This document shows positions 10,776-31,073 of a stretch of 39,366 nt of DNA, in pieces. The stretch's first letter is position 1. The number at the start of each line of letters is the position of its first letter. The stretch covers positions 1-39,366 of the forward strand of contig JAHJCU010000001.1 in assembly GCA_018812925.1 (NCBI GenBank). Reading direction: 5' to 3'. Source of the DNA: Candidatus Omnitrophota bacterium (lineage in GTDB: Bacteria; CAIJMQ01). The position numbers and the translations under genes are program-made. The notes beneath the pieces are model-generated. The model was not told the origin of the DNA and searched no databases. It was given only the letters and a program-made list of their open reading frames with translations.

Positions 10776-10788
10776 CAGAAACCTCCTT

Positions 10789-11799: not shown

Positions 11800-11828
11800 T
11801 TTCAATGCCTCCTTTGTTCTATACTTGA

Positions 11829-11857
11829 ATTCTATCAGATGGTTATTAAAAAACCAA
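11829..11857 (-). promoter_or_regulatory. Putative promoter for the rubrerythrin operon
   Basis: On the minus strand TTGGTT (complement of 11852-11857) and TAGAAT (complement of 11829-11834) are 17 bp apart, about 30 bp upstream of the rbr start. A small inverted repeat TGGTT/AACCA overlaps the -35 and could be an operator. No known peroxide-regulator box is recognised. Confidence 0.4.
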
Positions 11858-11980
11858 TTCTGTAGAAATATGTTTTGCAACAGTAATCTATCTTAATTAA
11901 ATTGTTAGGATTAAAATGGAAGAGCAAAGAGGTCCACTATAGAAAGATTTTTGGGATATCTTCAATGTCTTCACTTGATA

Positions 11981-13762
11981 TTATTTTTGTTTAAAAATGA
12001 TTTTTTCAATAACGAGTCTTCCAGACCTTGCTTTAGTACGCTGGTCTGTATAATACCATGGTTTCTCCCACAACATTATTGTTAATTTATTCACCGCATA
12101 TGGTTTAGCTAACATTCCCAGTATTGACGACTCCGGAATATTGAATTCTTTCAGAACAGGTGATATTGCATCTATGTATGTATATTGTGATTGTCCCTGG
12201 TCATCATATAAATAAAGCCTAATTCCGCCAAAATCTTCTTTTGATTGGCCATAGCATTTAATTTGAATACCGTCGATATTTCTCAGGTTTATTTGTGGAA
12301 ATGTGATGTTTACATTTATTTCATTGCTTTGCTCATCTTCTGCCGCAAAATCAATAACTAAACCTTCGGTAGTGAATTCCGCGTCAACCTTACTGTTCCC
12401 AATACTCTCTGCATTTAAAATAAGTCCTTTGGGTTGCTTCATATCCAAAACTACGCTTTGTTTTGAAGATTTTCCATGCGACAAACGCTTAGGTTCCGAA
12501 ACATCTCGTTTCGCCCATTTTTTCAATAGGTTCGGATCCTGAGCAAGACGGGCCCCCAATAATTTGAAACCGTTTTTGACTAACGGGTCTTTTGCGAAAT
12601 AGTTGCGCACCATTCCATCTTCAAGAAAATTTGTCAAAGATAGAAATAGCATCGCCTGGTCAAGACTCAAATACCTGTCATCAACCTTTAATGTTTTGAT
12701 GTCGATGGAATCGCGAAAACCATAAGCGGGCGAATCTGCTGTTAAAGGCTTCCGCATTCCCATAGCATCAATCCTGCGCAAATTCGCGATAACGTGTCGC
12801 GGATAGTATTCTATTACTAATGCCGATGCATGCGGTGTTACAACCCACCACGGCAGAAACCCTCCTTCAGTATAGCCTTTGCCAGGGATATTGCAGTTTG
12901 ACCAGCCCCATACTTTAAGTCCGCGGTTTCTGGATTCTCGGATTTGATGCCATGCAAAATCGGCAATGGAATTTCCCATTTCTGTTGTAGCGGGAGAGTC
13001 TAAAAACATCGCGTCCATCGCCTGCATAAAAAGCCCGCCGAACCAGTAGCCCGGTTCATAAAAACTCAAACCGTCAGCGTTGACTTCATTTCTGTTAATC
13101 TTATCCCACAATTCCACCGGCGCAGAACCGCTTGCAATCATATAAAACACAACCGATCTGCAATCCGAGGCAAGCCAAAAATCGCATAATCCAATAGGCT
13201 TGTCATTTTTTAAATCGTAACCCCAGTATGTTCTACCAGTCGGGGCATCATAAAGTCTGCTCCAGTTTATTCGTTCGATTAACGGCGATACCTTGTCCGC
13301 GACTTCCGGAAAAAACTGCCGAACAAGTATCAGGCCGGTTACGAGTTTATTGAAATCTGATACACCCATAACGCCCTCGGCCAGTTTTGTATCTCCACCA
13401 ACATCAATCCAATTATACAAAAAACCATTACAAGATTCGATTTTGCCCAACGATTCGACAATTTTATTTATTCGTTGCAAAGCATCAGTTCTTGTGATAA
13501 ATCCCATCTTTTCAGCCGGGCCGATACAAGCCAGATACAAGCCAATGTTGGTTGTGTTTGTGTTTCCGCCGGATTCCTGAGAATCGGTCGGAAAGCCAGT
13601 TTCCTTTGCCAGATGACGGTCAAGATATGTCCAGGTTTCCTTCAGAAGCTGCCGCAAATACGCATCGTCCTGCTGTGAGCAAACAACAGCATGATTTGCC
13701 AAAGCGCTATTGCAAAACATTGCCATAATCAGCCCCAAAATACATAAAATATTTTTCCTCAT
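11981..13762 (-). CDS. Exported glucoamylase-like (GH144-related) protein with C-terminal beta-sandwich
   Basis: 593 residues. A signal peptide is clear (residues 1-22, ending SALA). Residues about 30-410 follow the pattern of the glucoamylase-like (PF10091-type) alpha/alpha barrel: TNIGLYLACIGPAEKMGFIT, GFLYNWID, then late GGFLPWWVVTPHASALVIEY and ANLRRIDAMG...YGFRDSID, equivalent to the 'PHASALA..F.P..A..NLR' and 'GFYDA.D' blocks of that family. Residues about 430-593 form a separate beta-rich domain (INVNITFPQINLRNIDGIQI, LYLYDDQGQSQYTYIDAI), resembling a carbohydrate-binding module. An AAGGAGGT site precedes ATG 13762. It is the last gene of the minus-strand carbohydrate unit, 50 bp after the preceding gene. 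Endo- or exo-beta-1,2-glucanase activity is plausible from context, but divergence from the 24559 gene leaves the substrate open. Confidence 0.75.
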   Translation of the reverse strand: MRKNILCILGLIMAMFCNSALANHAVVCSQQDDAYLRQLLKETWTYLDRHLAKETGFPTDSQESGGNTNTTNIGLYLACIGPAEKMGFITRTDALQRINKIVESLGKIESCNGFLYNWIDVGGDTKLAEGVMGVSDFNKLVTGLILVRQFFPEVADKVSPLIERINWSRLYDAPTGRTYWGYDLKNDKPIGLCDFWLASDCRSVVFYMIASGSAPVELWDKINRNEVNADGLSFYEPGYWFGGLFMQAMDAMFLDSPATTEMGNSIADFAWHQIRESRNRGLKVWGWSNCNIPGKGYTEGGFLPWWVVTPHASALVIEYYPRHVIANLRRIDAMGMRKPLTADSPAYGFRDSIDIKTLKVDDRYLSLDQAMLFLSLTNFLEDGMVRNYFAKDPLVKNGFKLLGARLAQDPNLLKKWAKRDVSEPKRLSHGKSSKQSVVLDMKQPKGLILNAESIGNSKVDAEFTTEGLVIDFAAEDEQSNEINVNITFPQINLRNIDGIQIKCYGQSKEDFGGIRLYLYDDQGQSQYTYIDAISPVLKEFNIPESSILGMLAKPYAVNKLTIMLWEKPWYYTDQRTKARSGRLVIEKIIFKQK

Positions 13763-13812
13763 AAAATACCTCCTTGTTAGTTATACACCAACGGCTTTAA
13801 TAAAACACGCTT

Positions 13813-16800
13813 TCAATAGTAAATAACCACCCTGGAGGGAATATCGTCAATCAGCACCTCGTCAGGCGTAAAAGATGCTATTGTTTTCCCATCGACCACA
13901 ACACTCTTAATCGGCGCTGCCAACGGCGATTTCAATACTACCTTAACAAGCGAAACCTTGTTTTTCGTCTGGATGTCAACGATTACACTGTTGTTAGATT
14001 TTTGCATCGACACACTGAATATACAATAATATGTCGGGAAATTTCTGATGGCAATCGGCTCTTTTTCCTTCAGCCAATTTTCAGGTATCCCTGCGCCGAT
14101 AACAAGCGTATTATCTGCAGTCTGTTCATATACAAACATCGTCCTTACGGCGTTTATGAAACCTGAGCCAATCCATGTATGAGGCATATCACCGATAAAT
14201 TGGGGTTCATTGGGGTCTCGCCAGACGACTTCTGCCCAGTGATTCCAGCTTGGAGGGCGACGGTCTTTAAGGAAATATTCAAGCAGCTCATTGGCTCTTT
14301 CCTTTTGTCCCATGAGCACAAACGCGCTGATAATCCGCATTTCATAAGGCGTATAATCTTTCCATTCTATTGTGCCGTCGCGCCGTTTAGTGAAATAGTC
14401 AAACCATTTATCAAAAGTATTATTCAGGAACGGTTGCGGTATGCGATTCAGTTCGCCGCAGATACCGATGCCGATAGCCGTTGATGTTGCATCAAAATCG
14501 CCCTTCTCGACACAGCCCGGAATAAAGTTAATCCCAGTGTTCGCTATTGCTTTCCGCATCGAGGCGTACAGATTCTCTTGAGATTCTTCGAGATGTTCAG
14601 CCCATTTCCCGGCAAGTTGTTTTTCGCCGAGCGCATTGGCTATTTCCACCGCGTCTTTTAGTCCTTTTATGATATAGAAGTCATCCCAGTATGAATGCAT
14701 CGGTTTGGCGGAATATCCTTCGTGGCTTATGGATTCCGGCACTAATCCGTAGCACGCCTGCTGCTCGGGAGTTCCTGAAAGATAAAGTTCTGTTTTGCGC
14801 TGGTTGTGCAGAGATTCTATGTATTCGACAGATTTAATAATTTTGGGAAACGTTTTTCGTAAATGCGCTATGTCATGCATAAATCGAAAGTATTCCGCTG
14901 TCAGGTAAATGAATTGCCCAGTGCTGTCATACTCATTAGTCGGGTCTGCTCCTCGCCAGTCAACCACACAGGGTATCTTGCCGTTTGGGTATTGATACTC
15001 GGCGTACCAGTCGATATATTCACGCACTTCCTCCGAATTCCCTGTTCGCAGAAGCGCTGTAGATATCTCAGAACCATCACGAATCCATGAACGGTCATAC
15101 GTCCTGGCGCCAGGTTCAATAGCAGCGCCGTTTCGACAAATGAGAATGTATCCGATGTTCGTCTTGAGAGTCTGAACAATCTGCTGCGCTGATGCAGGAA
15201 GTATGATATCGATTTTGTCGAGCTTGTCCTGCCATAATGTTTTTGCGTCATTGAACGTTTGCCTGACAAAAGCCATTCGCTCGTCTACAGCCACCTGCTG
15301 TAATTGCGAAATGCCATCAAACGGCGCTTCAAAAACTATGTCAATATACTGTTTCGATTTCAGGTTAAATCTGTATCCTAAAGCGGCAGAGCCAAGACCG
15401 GTTTCGTCAGAAATATTGTTGCCCGCAGGCGTTTTTAAGGAGGTTAGATATTCAGTGATATCTCCATCTGCGAATTGGGTCGCGATAAACCTGTCGGGTT
15501 TTGCGAGCAACACTATCGACCTATCATCAACAGAAACTTTGTATCCGTCAAAATTTATATTTTTTATTTTAGTTGTGCCACCAACGAGATTCAGCCACTG
15601 CGACGGCGGAAGCACCTGAAAAGGCCTTATCGCCAGAAAAAATGTGCCGCAGACTGTCCGCTCAGTCGGATTAGAAATTCGATAATTTGAGAAAATAGAA
15701 TACGCCCCATGTTTTCCTGCTGCCCATGCCGTAACTTTAAGTTCAATGTCTTTCTGCTGCCAGAGGACCGACGGAATCGGCAGATAGCCATTCTCCAGCG
15801 ACTGAGCCGTCGAAACATCAGCCCAGGTAATAAGACGGTTATTGACAAACAGAAATGGTTCAATAGAAAATCCTGCCTTGTCGATTTCGATTGCGCCCTC
15901 CTGGTTTATGAGCGCTTTTTTGCTGTTTCCTTCAGGCGGACCTATAATCGTCCAGTATGTTTGTTTTTTATCGAAATACTTCGGAAAATGTCCGCCAGGG
16001 GCATCGGCAGCAATTCTTTCATACAGTTTATTCAGTGTGGAGTCTGCATCTATCGGTATTACCTCAAGTGAACGGATGCCATAATATTTTTGGGGTCCTG
16101 AATTCATAATGAGCTTTAGGAATCTCGATTCACACTCGCCAAGATAGATATAGTCTTTCTGGCCGTTTCCATTTCGTACATGAAAGACCGGGTCGAAATT
16201 TTGACCATCGTTTGAAGTCAGCACCTGATAATCTGACGCATAGGCATTATCCCAGTTGATAACTATGCTGTCATATTCTGCGGCCTTTTTAAAATCAAAC
16301 AGAAACCACTGATTTTTGCCAGAACTGCTTCGCCATACCGTTTGAAGATTGTTGTCAATCACATTTTCCGGGCTCGCATTTTTTGTTGTAGAGGATGCGG
16401 CAACGACAGGGAGTGCGTTGTTGTCTGGTTTTTCGATAGGCTCGAAGGTAAAATTGTCTATGTATACAGAACCTTTGCCGCCTTTACCTGCTGAAACGAC
16501 AAATTCGATACGGTCGAGTTCACTAAGCGGTTTGCTGTCTGGTCCCCAGGCAAAAGAGATGTTGCGTTTCCTGATAACTGTTTTCTGCCAGTCGCGCGGA
16601 AACTCCACATCAACTTTTTTGTTCCACCATACATTGTCGGTCGGGTCCAAAAGTTTAAACTCAAAGTTATTGACCGGCGCATCAGCCCGCAGATAAAAAG
16701 TAAAACGGTAGTTGTCGGGCAGGTCAAGAGGAATATGTTTTTGAATGATTGCATAGCCTGCCCCGGCAACAAAATTAAAATCGAGCCGTATTGCGTTACC

Positions 16801-16977
16801 GCTAAAGCCTTTATCCGAGGCGATGTTGAGCGTAACGCCGTCGGAAACAATTATCTTCCAGCCCTGAATCGTTTCGAAATCATCAAGCATCTGTCCCTGA
16901 GCATTTACTTTTCCGGTTGAAAAAACTGTAAAAAATACCAGAAAAAAAATGTACAGTAATACACGATTGGCAGACAT
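13813..16977 (-). CDS. Large exported discoidin-domain protein with alpha/alpha-barrel catalytic-like region (paralog 1)
   Basis: 1054 residues. Signal peptide at residues 1-26 (ending KVNAQ). A first beta-sandwich (about 30-180) begins MLDDFETIQGWKI and includes DNVWWNKKVDVEF, like a carbohydrate-binding CBM-type fold. A discoidin/F5-8C domain follows (about 186-310; VVAASSTTKNASPENVIDN, QWFLFDFKKA). From about 340 comes a beta-rich linker, then a helical region (about 590-960) with YDRSWIRDG (about 626-634), SHEGY, HSYWDDF (about 761), GDFDATST, YTPYE, NHWAEVVW and IGDMPHTWIGSG. These suggest an (alpha/alpha)6 barrel glycosidase with acidic catalytic residues. A paralog lies at 19528-23028. 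I cannot assign a glycoside hydrolase family. AAGGAG precedes ATG 16977; the GH35 gene ends 37 bp upstream. Confidence 0.75.
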   Translation of the reverse strand: MSANRVLLYIFFLVFFTVFSTGKVNAQGQMLDDFETIQGWKIIVSDGVTLNIASDKGFSGNAIRLDFNFVAGAGYAIIQKHIPLDLPDNYRFTFYLRADAPVNNFEFKLLDPTDNVWWNKKVDVEFPRDWQKTVIRKRNISFAWGPDSKPLSELDRIEFVVSAGKGGKGSVYIDNFTFEPIEKPDNNALPVVAASSTTKNASPENVIDNNLQTVWRSSSGKNQWFLFDFKKAAEYDSIVINWDNAYASDYQVLTSNDGQNFDPVFHVRNGNGQKDYIYLGECESRFLKLIMNSGPQKYYGIRSLEVIPIDADSTLNKLYERIAADAPGGHFPKYFDKKQTYWTIIGPPEGNSKKALINQEGAIEIDKAGFSIEPFLFVNNRLITWADVSTAQSLENGYLPIPSVLWQQKDIELKVTAWAAGKHGAYSIFSNYRISNPTERTVCGTFFLAIRPFQVLPPSQWLNLVGGTTKIKNINFDGYKVSVDDRSIVLLAKPDRFIATQFADGDITEYLTSLKTPAGNNISDETGLGSAALGYRFNLKSKQYIDIVFEAPFDGISQLQQVAVDERMAFVRQTFNDAKTLWQDKLDKIDIILPASAQQIVQTLKTNIGYILICRNGAAIEPGARTYDRSWIRDGSEISTALLRTGNSEEVREYIDWYAEYQYPNGKIPCVVDWRGADPTNEYDSTGQFIYLTAEYFRFMHDIAHLRKTFPKIIKSVEYIESLHNQRKTELYLSGTPEQQACYGLVPESISHEGYSAKPMHSYWDDFYIIKGLKDAVEIANALGEKQLAGKWAEHLEESQENLYASMRKAIANTGINFIPGCVEKGDFDATSTAIGIGICGELNRIPQPFLNNTFDKWFDYFTKRRDGTIEWKDYTPYEMRIISAFVLMGQKERANELLEYFLKDRRPPSWNHWAEVVWRDPNEPQFIGDMPHTWIGSGFINAVRTMFVYEQTADNTLVIGAGIPENWLKEKEPIAIRNFPTYYCIFSVSMQKSNNSVIVDIQTKNKVSLVKVVLKSPLAAPIKSVVVDGKTIASFTPDEVLIDDIPSRVVIYY

Positions 16978-17014
16978 TATATTGAACTCCTTTTAAAAAG
17001 GTTTTTCCGCTCCG

Positions 17015-19432
17015 TCAGGATATCTTTATTGTGATTGGGTTTGCTGTTTTACTATGGGCGTAATATATTTTTACTTTTCGTGAAGATTGTTCGAATGGTA
17101 TCGATTTATCGTTTAGCAAAACGTTTTTTATTGTTCTTGTAGTGTCCAGACAAATCTGTCCGGGCGTATTCTCATTGCCGCTGACTTCTATGTTTATTCC
17201 GCAGTCAGTCGTTTCAATCTTTGTAATCTCTGAAGTTGTATTTACAATCGTAAAATTTTCCGACACCGGCATATCAAACACCAGCACAAGCCCGCTGAAA
17301 GGCGGCAGGAAAAATTCTCCACCGAAGTTTGCTTTCGTTGTAATCGCCTGATTATGGTAATTCAGCATAAAAAAGTATCCGCCGCCGTTTTTATGCAAGC
17401 GTGTGCGGGTTATAATCAAAGGATTATCGCAGTTGACCGGACCTTTGAAATTTATATCAAGACTTAAATGCTGCCATGCCTGTTTGTGAGCAGCGGCCTG
17501 ATACATAAAACCGGTTCCCAAAATCGCAGCTGAACCTTTTTGGCAATTTACTTTGATAGCGCAGGGTTTTCCGTTTCGCGTTAAAGCGATAACTTGTCCT
17601 TGTTTAGCGTTCAAAGTTTCAATATAACTGATTGCGTGTATTTCTTCTTTGGTTTCGACCCAGCGAATCATTCCATCGCTGTCAGGAAGTATCTGGTCAC
17701 TGCTTACGCCCAGACCATCGGCAAGCACAGTACAGGGATTAGCGTTAAGATCAAGTTTTGGCAGAGTCGGAAAACAAATCAAATGACCACCGCGGCGAAC
17801 ATATTCCAATAACATTTGCTGACTAGCCGCATCCATTTGTTCTGTGCAAGCTACCCATATTTGTTTGTAACGGTCGAGCTGAACCGCATCTGTGTTTGTA
17901 ATATCAACCGCATCATACTCCTGATTGTCCATAGCGAGAAGTTTGCCGAGGCTGTCAAAGAGGAGTTCATCCGTGACCATTCGCGGGTCAAGCCGACACT
18001 GAATAAACGAGCGGTCGTCGAGATTTTCGCCGATGAACAACGGGCAGGTAAATTCGCGATAATAATATGGTGGATAAAACGCCAATGCCTGCAAAGCTTT
18101 ATTTTGACTATCGCAAAGTCTTTGACCGTGGGTCTTAATCAATCTGCTGATATATTCTATTACAGGATAACTGTCGCCGGGCTCGCCTTGAATGTTGAGC
18201 GGTGTTTGCAGATAAAACGACGAATCGTAAATGCCCCAGCCGGGCGGATTTTCGCCTTCGCTAAACATATAATAATTCATAGCGACTGCGCCGTTTGCCA
18301 GACAGGCTTTATAAAACAACTCCATTTCATTTGGATAAACACGCACATTTGCTTCGCGGGTGCCTGCCTGAAGTTCAGCGACATAAGTCGGTCCGCGATT
18401 ACCCTGCAGGGCTTTTGTGAATGTGTTAATTAATCTGTCGTCGTGAAAATTGCGATATGACGGATTTTCCGGAATATGGTCAACGCCAAGCAGGATATTC
18501 GGATAGAGCCGTGACAATTTATGATACATCGACAGGCACACAGGCATACTTTTAGCTCTGCCAAAGACCCAGCCGGGCACATTATGGAATAGTGGAACAT
18601 TTACTTTGCGTTGGCGTATTTCTTCTATTAGCCAGCCGATATATTCAGCGTAAAAGTCGCGATGAAAAGTTTCCCAGTCGCGATAGGCAAGGTGGCCTTC
18701 TCTTGAAGTAACTTTGCCGACAGAAGCTTTGACTTTTGCAAAATCCGAATAGTCAGAGCCGTAGTATTTATTTAATGCGCCAATGTTTTTGTATGTGTTT
18801 TTAAGATAATCCCTGTATGATTCTAACGATGTTGCGCTGTAATCGCCACAGCCGTTAAGCCACTGGAACAGGCCGACTTCGTTGCAGACCTGCACCAAAG
18901 CTACCGGACCGCCATTGGAAAGTTGGTTTGCGGCGATAAGCGGCATTACGGCATCGTACCATCGCATTACTTTTTGTTTGTAATCGGGATGCTTTAAGCA
19001 GGTGTATTTTACCGGATACGGTCTGCCGTTTGAATCGCAGGCAAGAGCATCAGGATAATTTTCAAAAAACCATCGCGGAATTCCGTGCATAGCCAATTCA
19101 GCAAGAATGTATGGGCCGGGCTTGAGTATAAGATTCAGCTCCATTTCTTTGCAAAGTTCAATGAATCGCTCAAGGTTGAGGTTTGGAGCATACTTCCCCT
19201 TAAAATCGGGTCTGCCTTCGACCTGCTCGTGAAGCGACCACGGAACATAAGAAGATATGGTATTTAAGCCGGCTTCTTTTGCGAACTTCAAATGTTTTGT
19301 CCACAATTTGGCATCTATGCGGAAATAATGCATTTCGCCGCTTAAAACAAAATAGCTTCGTCCGTTACGCCCAAATGCCTGGTCGTTGAAATACAATCCG
19401 GAAACTTGCTGTTGATTTTTTAGCAATACCAA
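17015..19432 (-). CDS. GH35-family enzyme, probably cytoplasmic and acting on beta-1,2-glucosides
   Basis: 805 residues, no signal peptide. The GH35 TIM barrel is clear: SGEMHYFRIDAKLWTKHLKF, AKEAGLNTISSYVPWSLHEQ, LILKPGPYILAELAMHGIPR. The acid/base glutamate is E185 in ALVQVCNEVGLF. The nucleophile is probably E353 in TYVAELQAGTRE, a stretch unlike the 'E.W.GWFD' of classical beta-galactosidases. C-terminal residues about 500-805 hold a glutamine-amidotransferase-like segment (LLEYVRRGGHLICFPTLPKL) and beta domains. The start is TTG 19432 after AGAGGT. A GH35 member from Ignavibacterium has been reported as a beta-1,2-glucosyltransferase (from memory); placement beside GH144-like and phosphorylase genes makes such a role more likely than lactase. 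Beta-galactosidase remains possible. Confidence 0.85.
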   Translation of the reverse strand: MVLLKNQQQVSGLYFNDQAFGRNGRSYFVLSGEMHYFRIDAKLWTKHLKFAKEAGLNTISSYVPWSLHEQVEGRPDFKGKYAPNLNLERFIELCKEMELNLILKPGPYILAELAMHGIPRWFFENYPDALACDSNGRPYPVKYTCLKHPDYKQKVMRWYDAVMPLIAANQLSNGGPVALVQVCNEVGLFQWLNGCGDYSATSLESYRDYLKNTYKNIGALNKYYGSDYSDFAKVKASVGKVTSREGHLAYRDWETFHRDFYAEYIGWLIEEIRQRKVNVPLFHNVPGWVFGRAKSMPVCLSMYHKLSRLYPNILLGVDHIPENPSYRNFHDDRLINTFTKALQGNRGPTYVAELQAGTREANVRVYPNEMELFYKACLANGAVAMNYYMFSEGENPPGWGIYDSSFYLQTPLNIQGEPGDSYPVIEYISRLIKTHGQRLCDSQNKALQALAFYPPYYYREFTCPLFIGENLDDRSFIQCRLDPRMVTDELLFDSLGKLLAMDNQEYDAVDITNTDAVQLDRYKQIWVACTEQMDAASQQMLLEYVRRGGHLICFPTLPKLDLNANPCTVLADGLGVSSDQILPDSDGMIRWVETKEEIHAISYIETLNAKQGQVIALTRNGKPCAIKVNCQKGSAAILGTGFMYQAAAHKQAWQHLSLDINFKGPVNCDNPLIITRTRLHKNGGGYFFMLNYHNQAITTKANFGGEFFLPPFSGLVLVFDMPVSENFTIVNTTSEITKIETTDCGINIEVSGNENTPGQICLDTTRTIKNVLLNDKSIPFEQSSRKVKIYYAHSKTANPITIKIS

Positions 19433-19472
19433 TTTTCTACCTCTATTCTCTATATAATAAAATTCAATTTTA

Positions 19473-19500
19473 CCCCGTTAGAGATTTATTTCTAATGGGG
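19473..19500 (-). terminator. Intercistronic hairpin after the 1166-residue protein gene
   Basis: CCCCATTAGA and TCTAACGGGG on the minus strand pair over 10 bp (one G-T pair) around an 8-nt loop, followed by a short TAAAATTG stretch rather than a strong T-tract. It lies between the gene ending at 19528 and the GH35 start at 19432. It may partly terminate transcription or stabilise the upstream message, giving less of the downstream genes. Confidence 0.5.
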
Positions 19501-19527
19501 CTTACTAAACGGTTTTTCTGAAAATTT

Positions 19528-23028: not shown

Positions 23029-23060
23029 AGTTTGTTTTCCTGTATAGCAGACTTTGAGTT

Positions 23061-23086
23061 TAATAACATTTCTGCGTGTTATATTA
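23061..23086. promoter_or_regulatory. Candidate operator overlapping the minus-strand -10
   Basis: TAATAACA (23061-23068) and TGTTATATTA (23077-23086) form an inverted repeat around 8 bp. It overlaps the -10 element and start site of the minus-strand promoter, where a LacI-type repressor would act. The AACA...TGTT arms resemble the palindromes at 23297 and 23449. No experimental basis; inferred from symmetry and position. Confidence 0.35.
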
Positions 23087-23110
23087 TCCAATATGTCTTT
23101 GAAATGTCAA
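23081..23110 (-). promoter_or_regulatory. Promoter of the minus-strand carbohydrate operon
   Basis: On the minus strand TTGACA (complement of 23105-23110) and TAATAT (complement of 23081-23086) are separated by 18 bp, giving a perfect -35 and near-consensus -10 about 50 bp before ATG 23028. It faces away from the lacI promoters, so the intergenic region is divergent. Confidence 0.75.
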
Positions 23111-23250
23111 GTAAAAAAGCTGTTAGGAACAATATTATTTATGGTTGAGTTACTGCATAAAGATGAGTTTTAAAACTAAAAAAATTTCTATAATCCACAT
23201 TTTTAGTATATTTATGATTATGGCTTTTGGAATGCCTTAAAAGAATCATC

Positions 23251-23279
23251 TTGACAAAAATTAATGGGAGTTGTAAAAT
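23251..23279 (+). promoter_or_regulatory. Upstream promoter for the lacI-GH144-phosphorylase-transporter operon (copy 1)
   Basis: TTGACA at 23251-23256 and TAAAAT at 23274-23279 with an optimal 17-bp spacer. It is inside copy 1 of the 106-bp repeat, about 220 bp upstream of the lacI start. Confidence 0.75.
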
Positions 23280-23296
23280 TGTAAAAAGGTTTTTAT

Positions 23297-23307
23297 AACA
23301 TCATGTT
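23297..23307. promoter_or_regulatory. Candidate operator palindrome, copy 1
   Basis: AACATCATGTT is a perfect 11-bp palindrome about 18 bp past the -10, near the expected transcription start. This is a common LacI-family operator position, but the sequence does not contain the family's usual central CG, so the call is tentative. Confidence 0.35.
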
Positions 23308-23402
23308 TATTTTTGCTTGATTACTAAATAAAGTTGTATAACGTATGACCAAGTGAGAAATTGCCGGTCTATCTCCAGTTGGAATGCCTTAAAAGAATCA
23401 TC

Positions 23403-23431
23403 TTGACAAAAATTAATGGGAGTTGTAAAAT
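23403..23431 (+). promoter_or_regulatory. Proximal promoter for the lacI operon (copy 2)
   Basis: TTGACA at 23403-23408 and TAAAAT at 23426-23431, 17-bp spacer, identical to the copy at 23251. Transcription from here would give a leader of roughly 60 nt before ATG 23502. Confidence 0.8.
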
Positions 23432-23448
23432 TGTAAAAAGGTTTTTAT

Positions 23449-23459
23449 AACATCATGTT
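23449..23459. promoter_or_regulatory. Candidate operator palindrome, copy 2
   Basis: AACATCATGTT, same relation to the promoter as the 23297 copy. Two equal sites 152 bp apart (about 14.5 helical turns) could allow repression by DNA looping if the encoded LacI-type protein binds them. Inferred from symmetry only. Confidence 0.35.
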
Positions 23460-23501
23460 TGTTTTTGCTTGATTACTAAATAAATATGTGAGGATATCCA
23501 A

Positions 23502-24569
23502 ATGGTAACAGAAACAGGCAGTATAACCATTCATAATGTTGCAAAAGTTGCGGGGGTTTCAATTTCCACAGTATCGCGCGTTGTAAACGGTTTAGATCGG
23601 GTTGCGCCTGATACGCGACATAAGGTAAAAACGGCCATTCGCCGTTTAGACTTTCACCCTAACAGCCGGGCACAGGCGCTGAGCAGAAAACGGACCGATA
23701 CAATTAGTCTGATAGTTCCGGATTTCGAGGGCCAGTATTTTTCAATGCTGATGGAAGGCGCACATGAAGAAGCACAAGCCAATGGCGTTCACATTATGGT
23801 TCTCAAGGCAAAAAGCTCGGAGGAAAAAATCGAGGCTGTTACCCGCTTGTGTTCGCAGGGACGAACCGATGGCGTGATTTTAATGCTTTCTGACTTATAC
23901 GGTGATGTCCTCAAAGGCATCGGCCATATTAACAGCCCCTTGGTAATTCTCGACCAGGATGTTCACTCCTGGCGGCTGGATAATATACTTTTGGATAACA
24001 GGATTGGAGCTTTTGAAGCAACAAGGCATTTCATAGATACCCATAACGTTGATGATGTATTTTTCCTCGGCGGTTCTGAAGACAACGTTGATACTACTGC
24101 ACGAGCCCGTGGTTTTGCTGATGCACTTAAGTCAATAGGATTGAATGCTAAAGGCAGACAGTTTTTCGGCAATAGTTATAGCTATGACGAGGGTTATCAT
24201 CTTGCGGAAGAAAAAATATTTCCCTTGATTAATCCTGAGAAACATTATGGTGTTGTGGCGGCTAATGACGATATTGCCTGCAGTATCATTGATGCCTTGA
24301 TGGATAAAGGAATTAGGGTTCCTGAGCAGGTTGGGGTAACCGGTTTTGATGATTCAGATATGGCAATACATCGCAGACTAAAGATTACTACAATGCGTAT
24401 CCCAACCAAAGAAATTGGTCGTGTTGCGGTTAGAATGATTCTGAACCGCTTGTCAGGCCGGGTTTCAGAACCGGCGAAAGTTGTATTAAAAGCACGGCTC
24501 ATAGTACGTGATTCGTGCGGCTGTGGCAGGCACGATAACTCAATACCCGGAGATAAACATGGTAAGTAG
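23502..24569 (+). CDS. LacI-family transcriptional regulator
   Basis: 355 residues. The N-terminal helix-turn-helix and hinge helix are typical: TIHNVAKVAGVSISTVSRVV followed by NG (residues about 8-29), then FHPNSRAQALSRKRTDTISL. The periplasmic-binding-protein-like core spans about 62-345 with the dimer-core sequences DGVILML, VVAANDDIAC and VGVTGFDDSDMAIHRRLKIT. It should repress or activate the divergent carbohydrate units and be relieved by an oligosaccharide or its breakdown product. GAGGAT precedes ATG 23502. Its 3' end overlaps the GH144-like gene by 11 bp, so the two are translated from one message. The Cys-containing tail RDSCGCGRHD resembles a common LacI/GalR C-terminal pattern. 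Confidence 0.93.
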   Translation: MVTETGSITIHNVAKVAGVSISTVSRVVNGLDRVAPDTRHKVKTAIRRLDFHPNSRAQALSRKRTDTISLIVPDFEGQYFSMLMEGAHEEAQANGVHIMVLKAKSSEEKIEAVTRLCSQGRTDGVILMLSDLYGDVLKGIGHINSPLVILDQDVHSWRLDNILLDNRIGAFEATRHFIDTHNVDDVFFLGGSEDNVDTTARARGFADALKSIGLNAKGRQFFGNSYSYDEGYHLAEEKIFPLINPEKHYGVVAANDDIACSIIDALMDKGIRVPEQVGVTGFDDSDMAIHRRLKITTMRIPTKEIGRVAVRMILNRLSGRVSEPAKVVLKARLIVRDSCGCGRHDNSIPGDKHGK

Positions 24570-25932
24570 AAGATATACCAGCTTTATATTTTTTATTGTG
24601 ACCGTTTTGTTTTTTAGCGGGTCCTGCTTTGCTTTATCTTCTAAGGTTAACCGGATAGTCTTCACTGCCGAAAACGAGTGTTTGCTGGAGGAGATCAGCA
24701 GTGCTTCCTTTCAATTTTTCTGGAAGGAGGCCCATCCTGTTTCCGGCCTTGTGCGGGATAAAACAGGCAAAGATTTTTGCAGTGTGGCATCTTTAGGCTT
24801 TGGTTTGGCTGCACTGCCGATAGGCGTTGAACGTGGCTACGTATCCCGCCAAGCGGCACAGGATCGTGCGCTAAAAGCGCTTAGAACAATTAAAAAATCA
24901 AATGCCCAGCACAATGGCATGTATTGCCATTTTATCGATTTTGCCACCGGAAATACAACATCTCTTAGCTACGAGAGTAGCGCATCTTCAATAGATACGG
25001 CTCTTATGGTAGCAGGTGCAATTGTTGCCGGCGAATATTTCAAAGGTGAAGTTAAAGAACTTGCCGAAGATATTTTTGCCGGCGTGAACTGGCAGAGCTT
25101 TGTAGATTCCCAACAAAGAGGCCAGGCATACCAACAAAAAGGCCAGGTGTATATGGCCTGGAAGGCAGACGACCCGAATAATATGAGTGATTCAGGCCAA
25201 TTCGAGAGACAGACTTGGGATTGGTACACCGACGAAACGCTTCTGATAGTTTTGCTCGGTCAGGCATCACCTGTTGAAAAGTATCGACTAAAGCCGGAGA
25301 CAATGACTAACTGGAATCGGCCGGTCGGAAAATATAAAAACGGCCAGCCGTTTATCTATACGTATCCTGGGACATTGTTCACTTATATGTTCGCGCACTG
25401 TTTTTATGATTTCAAAAAAACAGGCAAAGATTCGCTCGGCATTGACTGGTTTGAAAACACTCGCAGAGCAGTGATTGCCAATCGCGATTGGTGCCGCGAC
25501 AATAGTGATAAATTCCCTACCTATGGATTAAATCGTTGGGGGATTACAGCCGGCGTAGGGCCGGGGGACGAATATGTTGTACTCGGCCATCAGCCTCGCG
25601 GAGCAAGCGAAAATCAGGGCGAATATGGGACGCTCCATCCTTATGGAGCGGGTATGTCAGTTCCATTTGCACCAAACGATGCAATTAAAGCGCTTAAAGA
25701 AATGCGAAATTTGGAAGTAGCAGGAAAACCAGTATGGCAATCTGTCGAGCAGGGCGGATACGGCTTTTGGGATGGTTTCAACATTAAGGAAGATTGGGTT
25801 TCGGACCAGGTAATCGGCATTGCTCAAGGACCAATGCTTTTGCTGATAGAAAATGCTCGCAGCGGACTTATATGGAAACTTATGATGCAAAATGAATATG
25901 TAAAACAGGGTCTTAAACGGGCCGGGTTTTAA
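24559..25932 (+). CDS. Secreted GH144-like endo-beta-1,2-glucanase
   Basis: 457 residues from ATG 24559, supported by GGAG just upstream and by the signal peptide this start gives (MVSRRYTSFIFFIVTVLFF, then SGSCFA); the frame itself is open further back. The glucoamylase-like barrel is well matched: SASFQFFWKEAHPVSGLVRD, SVASLGFGLAALPIGVERGY, SSIDTALMVAGAIVAGEYF, DWYTDETLLIVLLGQASP (from residue 221), TLHPYGAGMSVPFAPNDAIK and GFWDGFNIKEDWVSDQVIGI. GH144 enzymes cut beta-1,2-glucan into sophorooligosaccharides. Length matches the Chitinophaga-type enzyme. It overlaps lacI and lies 51 bp before the phosphorylase gene. Other PF10091-type activities cannot be excluded by eye, but the adjacent phosphorylase favours beta-1,2-glucan. 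Confidence 0.85.
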   Translation: MVSRRYTSFIFFIVTVLFFSGSCFALSSKVNRIVFTAENECLLEEISSASFQFFWKEAHPVSGLVRDKTGKDFCSVASLGFGLAALPIGVERGYVSRQAAQDRALKALRTIKKSNAQHNGMYCHFIDFATGNTTSLSYESSASSIDTALMVAGAIVAGEYFKGEVKELAEDIFAGVNWQSFVDSQQRGQAYQQKGQVYMAWKADDPNNMSDSGQFERQTWDWYTDETLLIVLLGQASPVEKYRLKPETMTNWNRPVGKYKNGQPFIYTYPGTLFTYMFAHCFYDFKKTGKDSLGIDWFENTRRAVIANRDWCRDNSDKFPTYGLNRWGITAGVGPGDEYVVLGHQPRGASENQGEYGTLHPYGAGMSVPFAPNDAIKALKEMRNLEVAGKPVWQSVEQGGYGFWDGFNIKEDWVSDQVIGIAQGPMLLLIENARSGLIWKLMMQNEYVKQGLKRAGF

Positions 25933-25983
25933 TCAGGTGGCATTAAAAAAGATTGATGAAAAATAATTTTGAGAGGTGGTAAA

Positions 25984-28900
25984 TTGGCGGATATTGCAAA
26001 AGTATATGAAATAAAGAATTCTTCGGGATTGAAATTTTCCATTTTCGAAAATGGCGTTGTAAAAAATATAGAGCAGAATTTGATACAGATAAATCTTACG
26101 GATGATTCGCTGCTGGAAAAGGGCTGCTCCAATCTGTATCTTAGAAAAAAAACAAATGGCAAAATTTCTGCTGTGCCGCTTCTTGGGCCGGCGAGTAGTG
26201 CGAAGAAATTTATCGATGAAAATAATTACCAGTTTAAAGGTGAGTTTGAAGGAATAAAATTTTCCGGTAGATTGCTGCTTACAGAAAAAAGCGGTTGTTG
26301 GTTGTGGAATGTGCAATTGCAAAATACGAACAAAGATGAGCAGGACGTTGACCTTGTTTATGTTCAGGATGTTGGGCTTTCCTGCGCCGATGGAAATGAA
26401 AAAAACGAATCCTACATAAGTCAGTACACGGATTATAAGCCGCTCAATCACAAAGAGATTGGCTATGTTGTTTGCTGCCGTCAAAACGAACACGGGCCGG
26501 GCTGCGTGCCCTGGCTGGCGTTGGGTTCAATTGGCAAAACGAAAAGTTTTTCAACAGATGGTATGCAGTTTTTCGGCACAAGCTACAGAGCAACGGGTCT
26601 GGCTGAGGCACTTTCGCAATCCGAATTTGGCGGATTGTCTCAACAGGAACTTGGTTTGATTGCTTTGCAAGCCGAATCAATGATTTTGAAATCTGGACAG
26701 GAAAAAGATTTTGGTTTTTTTGGTATTTTCCACAAAGACCATCCAGCGGCTACTACGCAAGATGATTTAAAATTGATTGAGCCGGATTTACAGGATATTA
26801 AAAAACTCGCCCAGAAACCATGGCAAGATAATTGTGCTTACGTTGAATCGGTTGGCAGCTTATTTTCGCAGTCGCCGTTATTTGCCTCTGAAGACCTTAC
26901 CGATGAGGAACTGAACAAACTGTTCGGCTCCGATCGCAGGCATAGCGAGTTTTGCAATGGACAGTTACTTTCATTTTTTTATGGCGATGACAATCGTCAT
27001 GTAGTGTTGCGCCGCAAAGAGCTTATTGTGCAGCGGCATCACGGCCATATAATGAAAACCGGCAATAGCTTAACGCCGGATGATGCGATAATGTGCTGCA
27101 CGTCTTATATGTTCGGCGTTTTCCAATCTCATATTGCTCAGGGTAATGTTAGTTTCAATCGCTTTCTGACTGTAAATACAAATTCCCTTAATATACCGCG
27201 TCATACGGGACAGCGGATTTTTGTGCGGCAAAACGAGCGGTATTACCAGCTGGGAATACCATCGGCTTTCGAGATGTCGCTTAATCAATGCAGATGGATA
27301 TACAAAAAGGGCGATTTGATGTTCGAGGTTCTCTCTTTAGCATCACAGGATTCTCCGGAAATTACGCTGAAGCTTCGGATTCTTCAGGGACAGGAACCGG
27401 AATGGTTGATTTCAAGTAATCTCACAGCTGAACACAACTGGCAGATAGTAAGCGAAGAGAAAAACAGCTTAAAAATCCTGCCTGGTGAAAAGAGCGAGCT
27501 GGCTCGTATGTTTCCCGGTGGTTTTTTTGGTGTCCGATTGGAAAATACAAAGGGTGTTAAACAAACAGGAGGTGATGAACTGCTTTTTGCCGACGGTAAA
27601 AGCAGGGGACTAAGTTTTCTTGTGATGACTCTGGCTCAAACGAAACAGTTCACAATGCGGATTGAAGGCAGGCTTGCCCCCTCAGCTTCCTGTGGAACAG
27701 AAGCAGAAACTGAGAAAGCTATTTCCTTCAGCTTCGATTTGTCGTCGGTTAAAGCAAATACGGCGATAAGTCCAATAAGCGAGATTCTGCCATGGTTTGA
27801 ACAAAACGCCCAAATCCATTATCTTGTATCGCATGGCCTGGAGCAGTACGGCGGAGCGGCATGGGGGACTCGGGATACATGTCAGGGTCCGATAGAAATG
27901 CTGCTGGCTCAGGGGCATTATTCTGCTGTGAGGAAGATACTTTCCGTTATCTTCTCGAATCAAAATACCGATGGCAACTGGTCGCAATGGTGGATGTTTG
28001 ATGGCTATAAAAAAATCAGAGCAGGCGAATCACACGGCGATGTTATTTTCTGGCCGGTCCTGGCGATGAGCGAATACATCTGTGCATCAAGTGATTACGA
28101 TTTTCTAAATGAATCGCTGCCATATTATGATGGCAAATCCGAAAGTGAAACTGTCATCGAACATATTAATCGCATAATCAAACATATAAAAGATACACGT
28201 TTTGTCAGCGGCACAAACTTGGTAAACTACAGTAATGGCGATTGGAACGATTCAATGCAGCCGGCTAATCCGGAACTTAAAAAAAGATTGATTAGCTCGT
28301 GGACTGTATGTCTGAGCTATCAGGCCTTCAGGTCTTTTGGAAAAGTATGCCAACAGAGCGGTCGCAACGAGATAGCCGAAGAAATGGGCAGATTGTGCGA
28401 TGCGATTCAAAAAGATTTCAGCCGTTTGCTGATTAAAGATGGTGTGGTAGCCGGATTCGGTCTTGTCGGCGATAAAGATAAAATTGATTTACTGCTGCAT
28501 CCTTCCGACAGCACAACAGGCATTCATTATCGCCTGCTGCCTATGACTCGCGGGATACTAAGCGGTATATTTACACCCGAGCAGGCAAAAGCACATGCTG
28601 AAATTATAGAGAAACATTTGAAAGGTCCTGATGGCGCAAGGTTGATGGACAAACCGGTTAAATACAACGGCGGATTACAAACATATTTCAAGCGAGCAGA
28701 AAGCTCGTCCTTCTTCGGACGTGAAATCGGTCTTATGTACACCCATGCTCATTTACGATATGCTGAGGCAATGGCTCGGTTGGGACATGCAAAATCTTTC
28801 ATAAAAGCGTTGCGTCAGGTTATACCGATAGACATACAGCAGATAATACCTCAGGCTGATATACGGCAGTCTAATTGTTATTACACCAGTTCGGACGGGG

Positions 28901-29313
28901 ATTTTGCAAGTCGTTACGAGGTCAACGACCATTACGAAGATTTGCTCGCCGGCAAAGTTGCACTAAAAGGCGGTTGGAGAGTGTATTCCAGCGGCCCCGG
29001 GATATTTGTTAAATTTATAATCGCTTATCTGCTGGGAATTCGTTATAACTGCGGCCATACTATTTTCGACCCTGTCTTATCCAAAGAGTTTGACGGTCTT
29101 GCCGCTCAGATGAAATTGCATGGTCACAATGTGAAATTGGTTTATTCTGTCAGCGGCAAAAACGATGGAGTAAAGAAAATTGAGATTAACGGCGCAGGCG
29201 TTGAATTTGAGAGGGAATCCAATCCATACCGCACAGGTGGCGCAAGCATTGAAGATTCCAAATTGAAAATGGCTCTTAATAAAAATAGCAACACGATAAA
29301 AATCAGTTTTTAA
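25984..29313 (+). CDS. GH94 1,2-beta-oligoglucan phosphorylase
   Basis: 1109 residues, close to the Listeria-type sophorooligosaccharide phosphorylase (about 1110) and well above cellobiose phosphorylase (about 800) and below cyclic glucan synthase (about 2800). No signal peptide, so cytoplasmic. The barrel carries YGGAAWGTRDTCQGPIEMLL (about 620-640), TDGNWSQWWMFDG, and SNGDWNDSMQPANPELK with the general-acid GDWND at residues 752-756. The C-terminal part shows YTSSDGDFASRYEVNDHYED and KGGWRVYSSGPGIF for phosphate and substrate contacts. It would cleave (Glc)n + Pi to (Glc)n-1 + alpha-glucose 1-phosphate. The start is TTG 25984, chosen because GAGAGGTGG is correctly placed; an upstream in-frame TTG at 25969 has none. 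It is 32 bp before the symporter gene. Confidence 0.88.
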   Translation: MADIAKVYEIKNSSGLKFSIFENGVVKNIEQNLIQINLTDDSLLEKGCSNLYLRKKTNGKISAVPLLGPASSAKKFIDENNYQFKGEFEGIKFSGRLLLTEKSGCWLWNVQLQNTNKDEQDVDLVYVQDVGLSCADGNEKNESYISQYTDYKPLNHKEIGYVVCCRQNEHGPGCVPWLALGSIGKTKSFSTDGMQFFGTSYRATGLAEALSQSEFGGLSQQELGLIALQAESMILKSGQEKDFGFFGIFHKDHPAATTQDDLKLIEPDLQDIKKLAQKPWQDNCAYVESVGSLFSQSPLFASEDLTDEELNKLFGSDRRHSEFCNGQLLSFFYGDDNRHVVLRRKELIVQRHHGHIMKTGNSLTPDDAIMCCTSYMFGVFQSHIAQGNVSFNRFLTVNTNSLNIPRHTGQRIFVRQNERYYQLGIPSAFEMSLNQCRWIYKKGDLMFEVLSLASQDSPEITLKLRILQGQEPEWLISSNLTAEHNWQIVSEEKNSLKILPGEKSELARMFPGGFFGVRLENTKGVKQTGGDELLFADGKSRGLSFLVMTLAQTKQFTMRIEGRLAPSASCGTEAETEKAISFSFDLSSVKANTAISPISEILPWFEQNAQIHYLVSHGLEQYGGAAWGTRDTCQGPIEMLLAQGHYSAVRKILSVIFSNQNTDGNWSQWWMFDGYKKIRAGESHGDVIFWPVLAMSEYICASSDYDFLNESLPYYDGKSESETVIEHINRIIKHIKDTRFVSGTNLVNYSNGDWNDSMQPANPELKKRLISSWTVCLSYQAFRSFGKVCQQSGRNEIAEEMGRLCDAIQKDFSRLLIKDGVVAGFGLVGDKDKIDLLLHPSDSTTGIHYRLLPMTRGILSGIFTPEQAKAHAEIIEKHLKGPDGARLMDKPVKYNGGLQTYFKRAESSSFFGREIGLMYTHAHLRYAEAMARLGHAKSFIKALRQVIPIDIQQIIPQADIRQSNCYYTSSDGDFASRYEVNDHYEDLLAGKVALKGGWRVYSSGPGIFVKFIIAYLLGIRYNCGHTIFDPVLSKEFDGLAAQMKLHGHNVKLVYSVSGKNDGVKKIEINGAGVEFERESNPYRTGGASIEDSKLKMALNKNSNTIKISF

Positions 29314-29345
29314 CTGTTATTAAATAAAGGAAGGAGAGAGACAAG

Positions 29346-30761
29346 ATGGATATAAAACAGCATCACATTACCGCCAAGGAAGACAGACTTCCTTTTATCC
29401 AAAAGTTTGGCTATGGAATCGGCGCCGTGGTCACAATCGTATCAGTTAATTCTTTGATGCAGCTAACCGGCCTTTTTTATATTGATTTATTGAAAATCAG
29501 CCCGATTCTTCTCGGGTTTGCAGCAGCGATACATAGATTATGGGATGCGGTCACAGACCCTCTGGTTGGAAATCTTTCCGATAACACTCGCTCCAGATTC
29601 GGCAGGCGACTTCCGTATATCCTGATAGGAGGTATTCTGGTTGGTATTACATTTGCGATGATATTCATGGTGCCCCGAGGCTGGAGTACAAATGCGATGT
29701 TCGGTTATTTCTTAGTGACGTCATTGATTTTTTATACTGCTGTTACTATTTACGGCGTGCCTCATGGCGCATTAGGTCTTGAAATGACTAACGATTACAA
29801 TGAAAGAACACGGCTATTTGCATATGCCAGTTTCATTGGAAATATAGCTGCCATTGCATCGCCCTGGATGTATTATTTCGCAAACAGGTCTATGTTTAAA
29901 GACCCAATCGAAGGCATGAAGTGGGTATGTATATGGATGGGGCTGATTCTGATTATTGCAGCAATCATATGTGTTCTTACATGTAAAGAAACTAGGACTG
30001 AACAGGTTAAAAAACAAAAGAAAATGGCATTCTGGGAAAGTTTTAAAATCACCTATAAGAATCGCACATTTATGATGCTGGTAATTGTTTTCGTGCTGGT
30101 AATAATCGGTTTCCAGTTCGTTATGGGTTTTAGTAATTTTATAATGATGTATTTTGTGTATTCCGGTGATAAAGTTGCTGCGTCCGGAATGATGGGATGG
30201 ATGGGAACAATCTGGGCGGTAACTGCCCTTATCGGTGTATTCCCCATGATGTGGGTATCTTCCCGTCTGGGCAAAACAAAGACGGTTATATTCTCCTTTG
30301 CAATTCTCACAGTTGCGCAACTTTTAAAAATCGTATGTTATAACCAGACATATCCTTGGCTAGCGGTGATACCTACCATTCTATTATCTTGGGGAATGGT
30401 AATGTGTTTCACGCTTGTCAATGCTATGAACGCTGATATCTGCGATGAGGATGAGCTTGTAACAGGAAAAAGAAGAGAGGGCAATTATTATGCGGTCTAC
30501 GGATGGTGGTGGAAGGTAGGGGTTTCTATAGCATGTGTCGTTAGTGGATATCTTCTAAAAGTAACAGGATATAATGCGGATTTTGCCCATCAGACAGCTT
30601 CCACCATGTTTTGGCTTAGATACTGTGAGATTGGGATACCTACAGTGTTATGCATAGTGGCAATACTAATTCTAACCAGATATCCTCTTACTGAAAATCG
30701 AGCTTATGAGGTTAAAGCGTTACTTGAAGAGCGAAGAAAAGCTCAGGCCGTCACTCCTTAA
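29346..30761 (+). CDS. GPH-family sugar:cation symporter (MFS)
   Basis: 471 residues with about 12 hydrophobic segments. The GPH signature is plain near residues 55-85: AAAIHRLWDAVTDPLVGNLS and DNTRSRFGRRLPYIL. A second family block is NADICDEDELVTGKRREGNY...YGWWWKVGVSIA. It should import oligosaccharides across the inner membrane with H+ or Na+. It is 32 bp after the phosphorylase with AAGGAAGGAGAGAG as ribosome-binding site, hence the likely importer of the sophorooligosaccharides; no TonB/SusCD outer-membrane system is seen. The substrate is inferred from context only. Confidence 0.92.
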   Translation: MDIKQHHITAKEDRLPFIQKFGYGIGAVVTIVSVNSLMQLTGLFYIDLLKISPILLGFAAAIHRLWDAVTDPLVGNLSDNTRSRFGRRLPYILIGGILVGITFAMIFMVPRGWSTNAMFGYFLVTSLIFYTAVTIYGVPHGALGLEMTNDYNERTRLFAYASFIGNIAAIASPWMYYFANRSMFKDPIEGMKWVCIWMGLILIIAAIICVLTCKETRTEQVKKQKKMAFWESFKITYKNRTFMMLVIVFVLVIIGFQFVMGFSNFIMMYFVYSGDKVAASGMMGWMGTIWAVTALIGVFPMMWVSSRLGKTKTVIFSFAILTVAQLLKIVCYNQTYPWLAVIPTILLSWGMVMCFTLVNAMNADICDEDELVTGKRREGNYYAVYGWWWKVGVSIACVVSGYLLKVTGYNADFAHQTASTMFWLRYCEIGIPTVLCIVAILILTRYPLTENRAYEVKALLEERRKAQAVTP

Positions 30762-31019: not shown

Positions 31020-31073
31020 ATGAATAAAAATAAACGTTTCTATAAAAAAGGAGGGATGAGATATGATAAGTAG
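31020..31073 (+). CDS. Short leader ORF overlapping the prepilin gene
   Basis: ATG 31020 has a near-perfect Shine-Dalgarno (AGGAGGAG, 31006-31013) at ideal spacing and encodes [17 protein letters not shown], 17 residues. Its stop codon (31071-31073) lies inside the start of the prepilin-like gene, whose own Shine-Dalgarno (AAGGAGGG, 31048-31055) is embedded in this ORF. The arrangement suggests translational coupling or a leader peptide; a chance ORF is possible. Confidence 0.4.

What the first reader, a model, noticed from the sequence alone, without database searches (positions are those of the whole stretch)
11981..30761. Two-transcript beta-1,2-glucan utilisation locus in a PVC-like anaerobe
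A secreted GH144-like endoglucanase, a GH94 enzyme of sophorooligosaccharide-phosphorylase size, a GPH symporter and a LacI regulator form one operon. Divergently there are a GH35 enzyme, a second GH144-related protein and two giant discoidin proteins. Motifs are read directly; the pathway (outside depolymerisation, import, inside phosphorolysis to glucose 1-phosphate) follows from known GH144 and GH94 functions. The set as a whole, with GPH import and no SusCD, is not a layout I know for this polymer.
Basis: partly seen in the sequence, partly recalled or inferred. Interest (0 to 1): 0.8.

Follow-up and report, generated by a model that had tools for sequence, protein, structure and literature searches.

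The report
Beta-1,2-glucan utilisation locus with orphan hydrolases
A small-genome bacterium from a sparsely sampled lineage carries a two-operon kit for eating beta-1,2-glucan (a bacterial sugar polymer), and the kit includes two secreted enzymes of an uncharacterised family that travels with beta-1,2-glucan genes across many bacterial phyla.

Summary
Eight genes in two divergent operons (11981-30761) are present as described, and beta-1,2-glucan use is the best reading. The phosphorylase is SOGP-type (657.6 bits to LpSOGP against 51.2 for the next GH94; all checked specificity residues kept). The 24559 protein is GH144-like. The GH35 protein is not a galactosidase: it matches Ignavibacterium beta-1,2-glucosyltransferase IaSGT (524.6 bits against 229.6 for the next group). 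Three corrections. First, the two 'discoidin' proteins are CBM32 modules fused to a beta-sandwich/(alpha/alpha)6 glycosidase domain of an unnamed family (called AA6 here). AA6 relatives occur across many phyla, often beside GH144 and beta-1,2-type GH94 genes. Second, the 11981 protein is nearest to GH189 but lacks its nucleophile, so it is probably an inverting glucanase. Third, the layout is not unique: at least three Planctomycetota MAGs carry it. New here: a tandem-duplicated promoter-operator ahead of the LacI operon, unique in the genome, and a likely beta-glucosidase-free route in which GH35 disproportionates sophorose so SOGP can finish it (no GH3 in the genome). No activity is proven. 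The novel part is AA6 as a possible beta-1,2-glucan hydrolase family.

The parts
11981..13762 (-). P0001: secreted beta-1,2-glucanase-clan (SGL clan) protein nearest to GH189 (CGS cyclisation domain) but lacking the retaining nucleophile; probable inverting beta-1,2-glucanase
   Evidence: PDB 8wy1 E 1e-20; profile alignment: TiCGS E1356->D200, D1127 kept, E1442->N; signal-peptide-like N-terminus
13813..16977 (-). P0002: secreted CBM32 + beta-sandwich/(alpha/alpha)6 hydrolase of family 'AA6', branch shared with Ignavibacteria/KSB1 members
17015..19432 (-). P0003: cytoplasmic GH35 beta-1,2-glucosyltransferase homologue (IaSGT type)
   Evidence: 7vkw E 4e-156; acid/base, nucleophile, E102 and R349 equivalents kept (PMC8861115)
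19528..23028 (-). P0004: secreted, probably lipid-anchored; two CBM32 + AA6 hydrolase region (window 19528-21645)
23083..23110 (-). Promoter-like site for the AA6/GH35 operon (TTGACA-16-GATAAT)
   Evidence: joint best of 51 sigma70-like sites in 19.4 kb, 11 of 12 matches
23227..23337 (+). First copy of a 111-bp duplicated promoter-operator unit (promoter 23251-23279, operator TTGTAAAAAGGTTTTTATAA 23279-23298)
23379..23489 (+). Second copy of the promoter-operator unit (promoter 23403-23431, operator 23431-23450), 97% identical
23502..24569 (+). P0005: LacI-family regulator, probable repressor acting on the flanking operators
   Evidence: Pfam LacI + Peripla_BP_3; operator found with LacI in L021 and L022, no comparable site in the L020 divergent region, where no LacI gene was found
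24559..25932 (+). P0006: secreted GH144-like endo-beta-1,2-glucanase
   Evidence: PF10091 170 bits; XcSGL/CpSGL E 7e-49/3e-38; acid E, candidate base D and clan Phe kept, clan Tyr replaced by His
25984..29313 (+). [quoted passage not shown]
   Evidence: LpSOGP 5h3z E 3e-196; subsite residues kept
29346..30761 (+). P0008: GPH-family sugar symporter, probable importer of beta-1,2-glucooligosaccharides
   Evidence: PF13347 236 bits; 94% identical copy behind SOGP in sister genome G002

Best explanation
A LacI-controlled locus for catabolism of beta-1,2-glucan. Outside the cytoplasmic membrane, the GH144-like enzyme (24559) and the GH189-like inverting enzyme (11981) cut the polymer. The two CBM32-AA6 enzymes act on the same glucan or on a form of it (cyclic, alpha-1,6-closed or end-protected). 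The GPH symporter imports the oligosaccharides. Inside, SOGP phosphorolyses Sop3 and longer to glucose 1-phosphate and stalls at sophorose. The GH35 enzyme disproportionates sophorose (2 Sop2 -> glucose + Sop3), which returns Sop3 to SOGP; net, sophorose + Pi -> glucose + G1P without a beta-glucosidase. Shown here: homology, active-site residues, gene order, operator. Shown elsewhere for homologues: the SOGP, GH144 and IaSGT reactions. Inferred: location, import, the coupled GH35-SOGP cycle, and the AA6 role.
For: SOGP: 657.6 bits to LpSOGP against 51.2 for the next GH94; N138, Y141, Q621, G623, A626, R630, D631, W758, D760, R907, R916, E917 and H924 all kept. GH144: best solved relatives include XcSGL and CpSGL, with catalytic residues kept. 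GH35: IaSGT 524.6 bits against 229.6 for the next group, and Glu176, Glu343, Glu102 and Arg349 equivalents kept. IaSGT disproportionates Sop2-5 without hydrolysis (PMC8861115) and SOGP acts on DP 3 or more (PMC5309861). No GH3 in the genome (10 of 14 controls ring); two phosphoglucomutase-family genes. Same divergent set in L020-L022. Operator at both copies of the LacI-side promoter, no other site in the genome within 3 mismatches.
Against: No biochemistry. In the GH144-like protein one of three clan-defining residues (XcSGL Y367) is His. The 11981 protein has Asp where the clan has its Glu acid. GPH substrate is unknown. No outer-membrane uptake gene was seen among the annotated genes of the locus. 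GH1 and other beta-glucosidase families were not searched in the genome. Sister genome G002 has SOGP, GPH and an AA6 gene, but GH144 and the GH35 were not found; its contig begins inside SOGP, so absence there is not proven.
Confidence: 0.85

Rival explanations
1. The core genes handle beta-1,2-glucan, but the AA6 proteins act on a different polymer or decoration (for example alpha-linked glucan or rhamnose-like side chains) and sit in the locus because both substrates occur in the same material.
For: AA6 Pfam matches are to alpha-rhamnosidase, GH15 and amylo-1,6-glucosidase domains; about half of the AA6 loci show no beta-1,2 marker (39 of 88 do).
Against: Across 80 loci (1.16 Mb) there are 26 GH144-like genes in 21 loci, about 160 times the density in 60 genomes (23 in ~169 Mb). 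All 25 GH94 neighbours score best against SOGP or against the CGS GH94 domain. All 5 genomes outside the genus with strong AA6 hits also carry PF10091 (hypergeometric P 7e-5). Many loci without a marker lie on short contigs.
Confidence: 0.35
2. The locus serves turnover of the cell's own periplasmic or cyclic beta-1,2-glucan rather than foraging.
For: The 11981 protein is related to the cyclisation domain of cyclic glucan synthase.
Against: PF10091, which detects CGS-type proteins (~2900-residue frames) in other genomes, has a single hit in this genome, the GH144-like gene itself; a synthase gene outside the assembled 92% is not excluded. SOGP, importer and LacI control fit catabolism. CBM32 modules fit external polymer.
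Confidence: 0.08
3. The locus targets another beta-glucan or beta-galactan, with GH144/GH94 names carried over from distant relatives.
For: Sequence identity to characterised GH144 enzymes is modest, and the clan Tyr is replaced.
Against: Three independent enzymes (SOGP, GH144-like, IaSGT-like GH35) point to the same linkage, and SOGP subsite residues that define beta-1,2 specificity are kept.
Confidence: 0.06

Closest known systems
Ignavibacterium album SGL/IaSGT gene cluster (IALB_1177-1187; PMC8861115)
   Same: GH144, a GH94 phosphorylase and the GH35 beta-1,2-glucosyltransferase in one cluster; a final product sophorose is proposed as donor for the GH35 enzyme
   Different: That cluster has an ABC importer with a binding protein, a TonB-dependent transporter and a CGS-type GH94; here GPH import, SOGP-type GH94, LacI, and two CBM32-AA6 proteins. 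Whether the I. album cluster has an AA6 gene is not stated in the text read
Listeria innocua SOGP cluster (lin1839/lin1840; PMC4757417, PMC8861115)
   Same: SOGP-based intracellular phosphorolysis
   Different: Listeria uses an ABC importer and a GH3 beta-glucosidase for sophorose; here no GH3 in the genome and a GH35 transferase instead
L020-L022 Planctomycetota loci (JAGLSG010000076.1, MHXZ01000005.1, JAHDQI010000187.1)
   Same: GPH-SOGP-GH144(-LacI) divergent from AA6-GH35(-GH189-like); 49-81% protein identity (GPH 55-57%)
   Different: One AA6 gene instead of two; no LacI found in L020; GH189-like partner only in L021
GH189 (TiCGS cyclisation domain, PDB 8wy1) and GH193 (SkSGL)
   Same: GH189 is the nearest solved relative of the 11981 protein; SGL-clan sequence
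(alpha/alpha)6 glycosidases with a beta-sandwich (GH94, GH15, GH65, GH78, GH95, GH116)
   Same: AA6 model superposes at Z 23-27
   Different: About 10-15% identity to all of them; no family stands out

Membership tests
[quoted passage not shown] SOGP N-terminal domain | tested here: met
   PF21958, PF21250, PF17167, PF21270 all above cut-off
[quoted passage not shown]
[quoted passage not shown]
   needs assay
GH144 / SGL clan (24559 protein) | PF10091 domain and similarity to characterised GH144 | tested here: met
GH144 / SGL clan (24559 protein) | Clan residues E239, F286 (XcSGL) and acidic residue at CpSGL E142 | tested here: met
   with PMC12102758
GH144 / SGL clan (24559 protein) | Clan residue Y367 (XcSGL) | tested here: not met
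   His in the window protein and in L020-L022; so it is called GH144-like
GH35 beta-1,2-glucosyltransferase (IaSGT) | Best match to IaSGT over GlmA and beta-galactosidases, with Glu176, Glu343, Glu102, Arg349 equivalents | tested here: met
GH35 beta-1,2-glucosyltransferase (IaSGT) | Transfer of glucose from sophorose without hydrolysis | not testable with these tools
   needs assay
GH189 (11981 protein) | Retaining nucleophile E1442 and acid/base E1356 | tested here: not met
   Asn and Asp respectively
GH193 (11981 protein) | Clustering with SkSGL | not tested
   SkSGL sequence not available here
Known Pfam/NCBIfam glycosidase family (AA6 region) | Match above curated cut-off in Pfam or NCBIfam | tested here: not met
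   window proteins: only PF17389 below cut-off; no NCBIfam model above cut-off
CAZy family (AA6 region) | Assignment by CAZy/dbCAN models | not testable with these tools
   no CAZy library here

The most novel reading that the evidence does not exclude
AA6 (CBM32 + beta-sandwich/(alpha/alpha)6, hallmark motifs SWIRDG, SHEGY..HSYWDDF, GDFDxTST, GDMPHTW) is an unrecognised glycoside hydrolase family that acts extracellularly on beta-1,2-glucan or on its cyclic or alpha-1,6-closed forms, and is a widespread hidden partner of GH144 and GH94 in beta-1,2-glucan loci across many phyla.
Probability: 0.5. Interest if true: 0.65.

Novelty: new variant of a known kind. Interest (0 to 1): 0.5.

Why it matters
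Beta-1,2-glucans are signalling and virulence polymers of many bacteria, and few degrading enzymes are known. The locus gives a compact, testable pathway that may not need a beta-glucosidase, and it points to a large uncharacterised glycosidase family whose genomic company suggests beta-1,2-glucan as substrate. That makes the function of hundreds of unnamed genes directly testable with commercially available substrate.

Tried and rejected
GH35 as beta-galactosidase or glucosaminidase: rejected on scores. 11981 as a GH189 cyclising transglycosylase: rejected, nucleophile absent. AA6 as a structural discoidin adhesin: rejected, confident glycosidase-fold model (pLDDT 95). AA6 filed under GH15/65/78/94/95/116: not supported, equal Z to many families; VIA-align lists do not exclude unlisted families. 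Naming the distant AA6 relatives (L102-L104) by Pfam/NCBIfam gave nothing above cut-off. AlphaFold job for the 11981 protein did not finish, so its fold was not checked. Organism identity: no named match to the window's own genome; only the small held phylum is known. The '189L' labels printed partly duplicate GH144, because the profile contained fused GH144 domains, and were not used for counts. CGS-type labels for GH94 neighbours at 33-40% identity are weak, because no cellobiose or chitobiose phosphorylase was included as a control there.

Full report
What is there. The region 11981-30761 holds two divergent gene sets. Rightward: LacI (23502), secreted GH144-like enzyme (ATG 24559), SOGP-type GH94 (TTG 25984), GPH symporter (29346), separated by -11 to +51 bp. 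Leftward: CBM32-AA6 (P0004, ATG 23028), GH35 (P0003), CBM32-AA6 (P0002), GH189-like (P0001), separated by 37-95 bp. Pfam assignments are; start codons and upstream sequence.

Phosphorylase. The best solved relative is LpSOGP (5h3z, 657.6 bits); the next GH94 (4zle) has 51.2 bits. In the printed alignment, read with the residue list of PMC5309861, N138, Y141, Q621, G623, A626, R630, D631, W758, the acid D760, R907, R916, E917 and H924 are identical.

GH35. The protein matches beta-1,2-glucosyltransferase IaSGT (7vkw, 524.6 bits) far better than the GlmA-type and related GH35 enzymes (229.6 bits) or beta-galactosidases (93 bits). The equivalents of Glu176, Glu343, Glu102 and Arg349 are present. 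Arg349 is said not to be conserved in many homologues (PMC8861115). IaSGT disproportionates Sop2-5 by single-glucose transfer and does not hydrolyse. SOGP acts on DP 3 or more (PMC5309861). Together these give a complete route from sophorose to glucose plus G1P without a beta-glucosidase. This coupling is my inference. It fits the absence of GH3 in the genome (controls ring in 10 of 14) and the presence of two phosphoglucomutase-family genes. GH1 was not searched.

GH144-like enzyme. Characterised GH144 enzymes (XcSGL, CpSGL) are among the best solved relatives. The Glu acid, the acidic residue at CpSGL E142 and the clan Phe are kept. The clan Tyr (XcSGL Y367) is His in this protein and in the three close relatives. 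By the definition in PMC12102758 one clan residue is therefore not met, and the protein is called GH144-like.

The 11981 protein. Its nearest solved relative is the GH189 cyclisation domain of TiCGS. Against TiCGS, the nucleophile E1442 is Asn, the acid/base E1356 is Asp (invariant in six relatives), and D1127 is kept. Residue roles are from PMC10834661. A retaining transglycosylase is therefore unlikely; an inverting hydrolase is more likely. Relatives in L038 and L044 are fused to a GH144-type domain in one polypeptide, which supports the same substrate. The structure job did not finish, so the fold itself was not checked.

The AA6 proteins. The two 'discoidin' proteins share a ~700-residue C-terminal region with invariant acids including D318, E370, D372, E436, D448, D510, D512, E563, E601 and D615. 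AlphaFold gives pLDDT 95.3: beta-sandwich, (alpha/alpha)6 barrel and C-terminal sheet. Foldseek and VIA-align put it equally near GH94, GH15, GH65, GH78, GH95 and GH116 (Z 23-27, about 10-15% identity). No Pfam or NCBIfam model passes its cut-off for this region in the window proteins, and the profile finds only two weak PDB matches by sequence, the better a GH94 enzyme at E 2e-5.

Company of AA6. In 80 loci (1.164 Mb) there are 26 GH144-like genes in 21 loci and 6 GH189-like genes, and 25 GH94-type genes in 25 loci. PF10091 occurs 23 times in 60 genomes, about 169 Mb summed from the table, so GH144-like genes are enriched about 160-fold near AA6. The two counts use different search methods. 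All 25 GH94 neighbours score best against the window SOGP or against the GH94 domain of cyclic glucan synthases; those at 42-53% identity are clear, those at 33-40% are not. In a set of genomes not chosen for this, all 5 genomes outside the genus with strong AA6 hits also carry PF10091 (45 of 290 do overall; P 7e-5), and in three of them the two lie on one contig about 4-5 kb apart. The tree places P0004 with the L020-L022 group and P0002 in a separate group with Ignavibacteria and KSB1 members, many of them flanked by GH144, so two branches of the family independently accompany beta-1,2-glucan genes. About half of all AA6 loci show no marker (39 of 88 do), partly because contigs are short, so other substrates remain possible.

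Regulation. A 111-bp unit is duplicated in tandem at 23227 and 23379 (97% identity). Each copy has a sigma70-like promoter (TTGACA-17-TAAAAT) running straight into TTGTAAAAAGGTTTTTATAA. With one leftward site at 23110 these are the three best promoter-like sites in 19.4 kb. The operator occurs nowhere else in the genome within 3 mismatches. L021 and L022, which have the LacI gene, carry (near-)perfect TAAAAACGTTTTTA palindromes in the same intergenic region; L020, where no LacI gene was found, has no such site there. This supports local LacI control; binding is not shown. The leftward promoter has no copy of this operator, so its control is open.

Distribution and origin. Of 7 genomes held for the phylum, only the window's genome and one sister have SOGP or AA6. 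The L020 Planctomycetota MAG is as close in SOGP (78%) as the sister genome (77%), while GPH is 94% in the sister and 57% in L020. Locus GC is 43.5% against 39.2% and 37.5% in the flanks. Horizontal transfer is plausible but not proven.

Verdict. Ordinary core, well supported: a beta-1,2-glucan utilisation locus, a new variant of a known kind. The surprise is the AA6 family.

Noticed in passing
window 23227-23489: Tandem 111-bp duplication of a promoter plus LacI-type operator ahead of the LacI-GH144-SOGP-GPH operon.
   Followed up: yes
L038:5930-8959 and L044:2613-5711: GH144-type and GH189-like domains fused in one secreted protein, next to AA6 and SOGP or GH35 genes.
   Followed up: partly
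L105-L107 (G035:C40, Lindowbacteria-like contig): A ~60-kb stretch with several GH144-type genes, a CGS-type GH94, AA6 proteins and a GH5-CBM32 protein: a very large candidate beta-1,2-glucan locus.
   Followed up: partly
L059, L066-L068, L073, L084 (Competibacteraceae): AA6 gene with a stand-alone CGS-type GH94 gene close downstream, with no GH144 detected nearby.
   Followed up: partly
L013:8051-9811: Probable lipoprotein of 586 aa with no Pfam match in the sister genome, near AA6; a similar N-terminal fragment seems to occur at L022:2-631.
   Followed up: no
window 11224-11880: Rubrerythrin gene next to the locus, consistent with an anaerobe.
   Followed up: no
window 31063-31893; L013:6886-7725 and 10099-11040: Prepilin-like N-methylation-motif protein beside the locus in the window, and two proteins with [28 protein letters not shown] near the sister's SOGP-GPH genes.
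   Followed up: no
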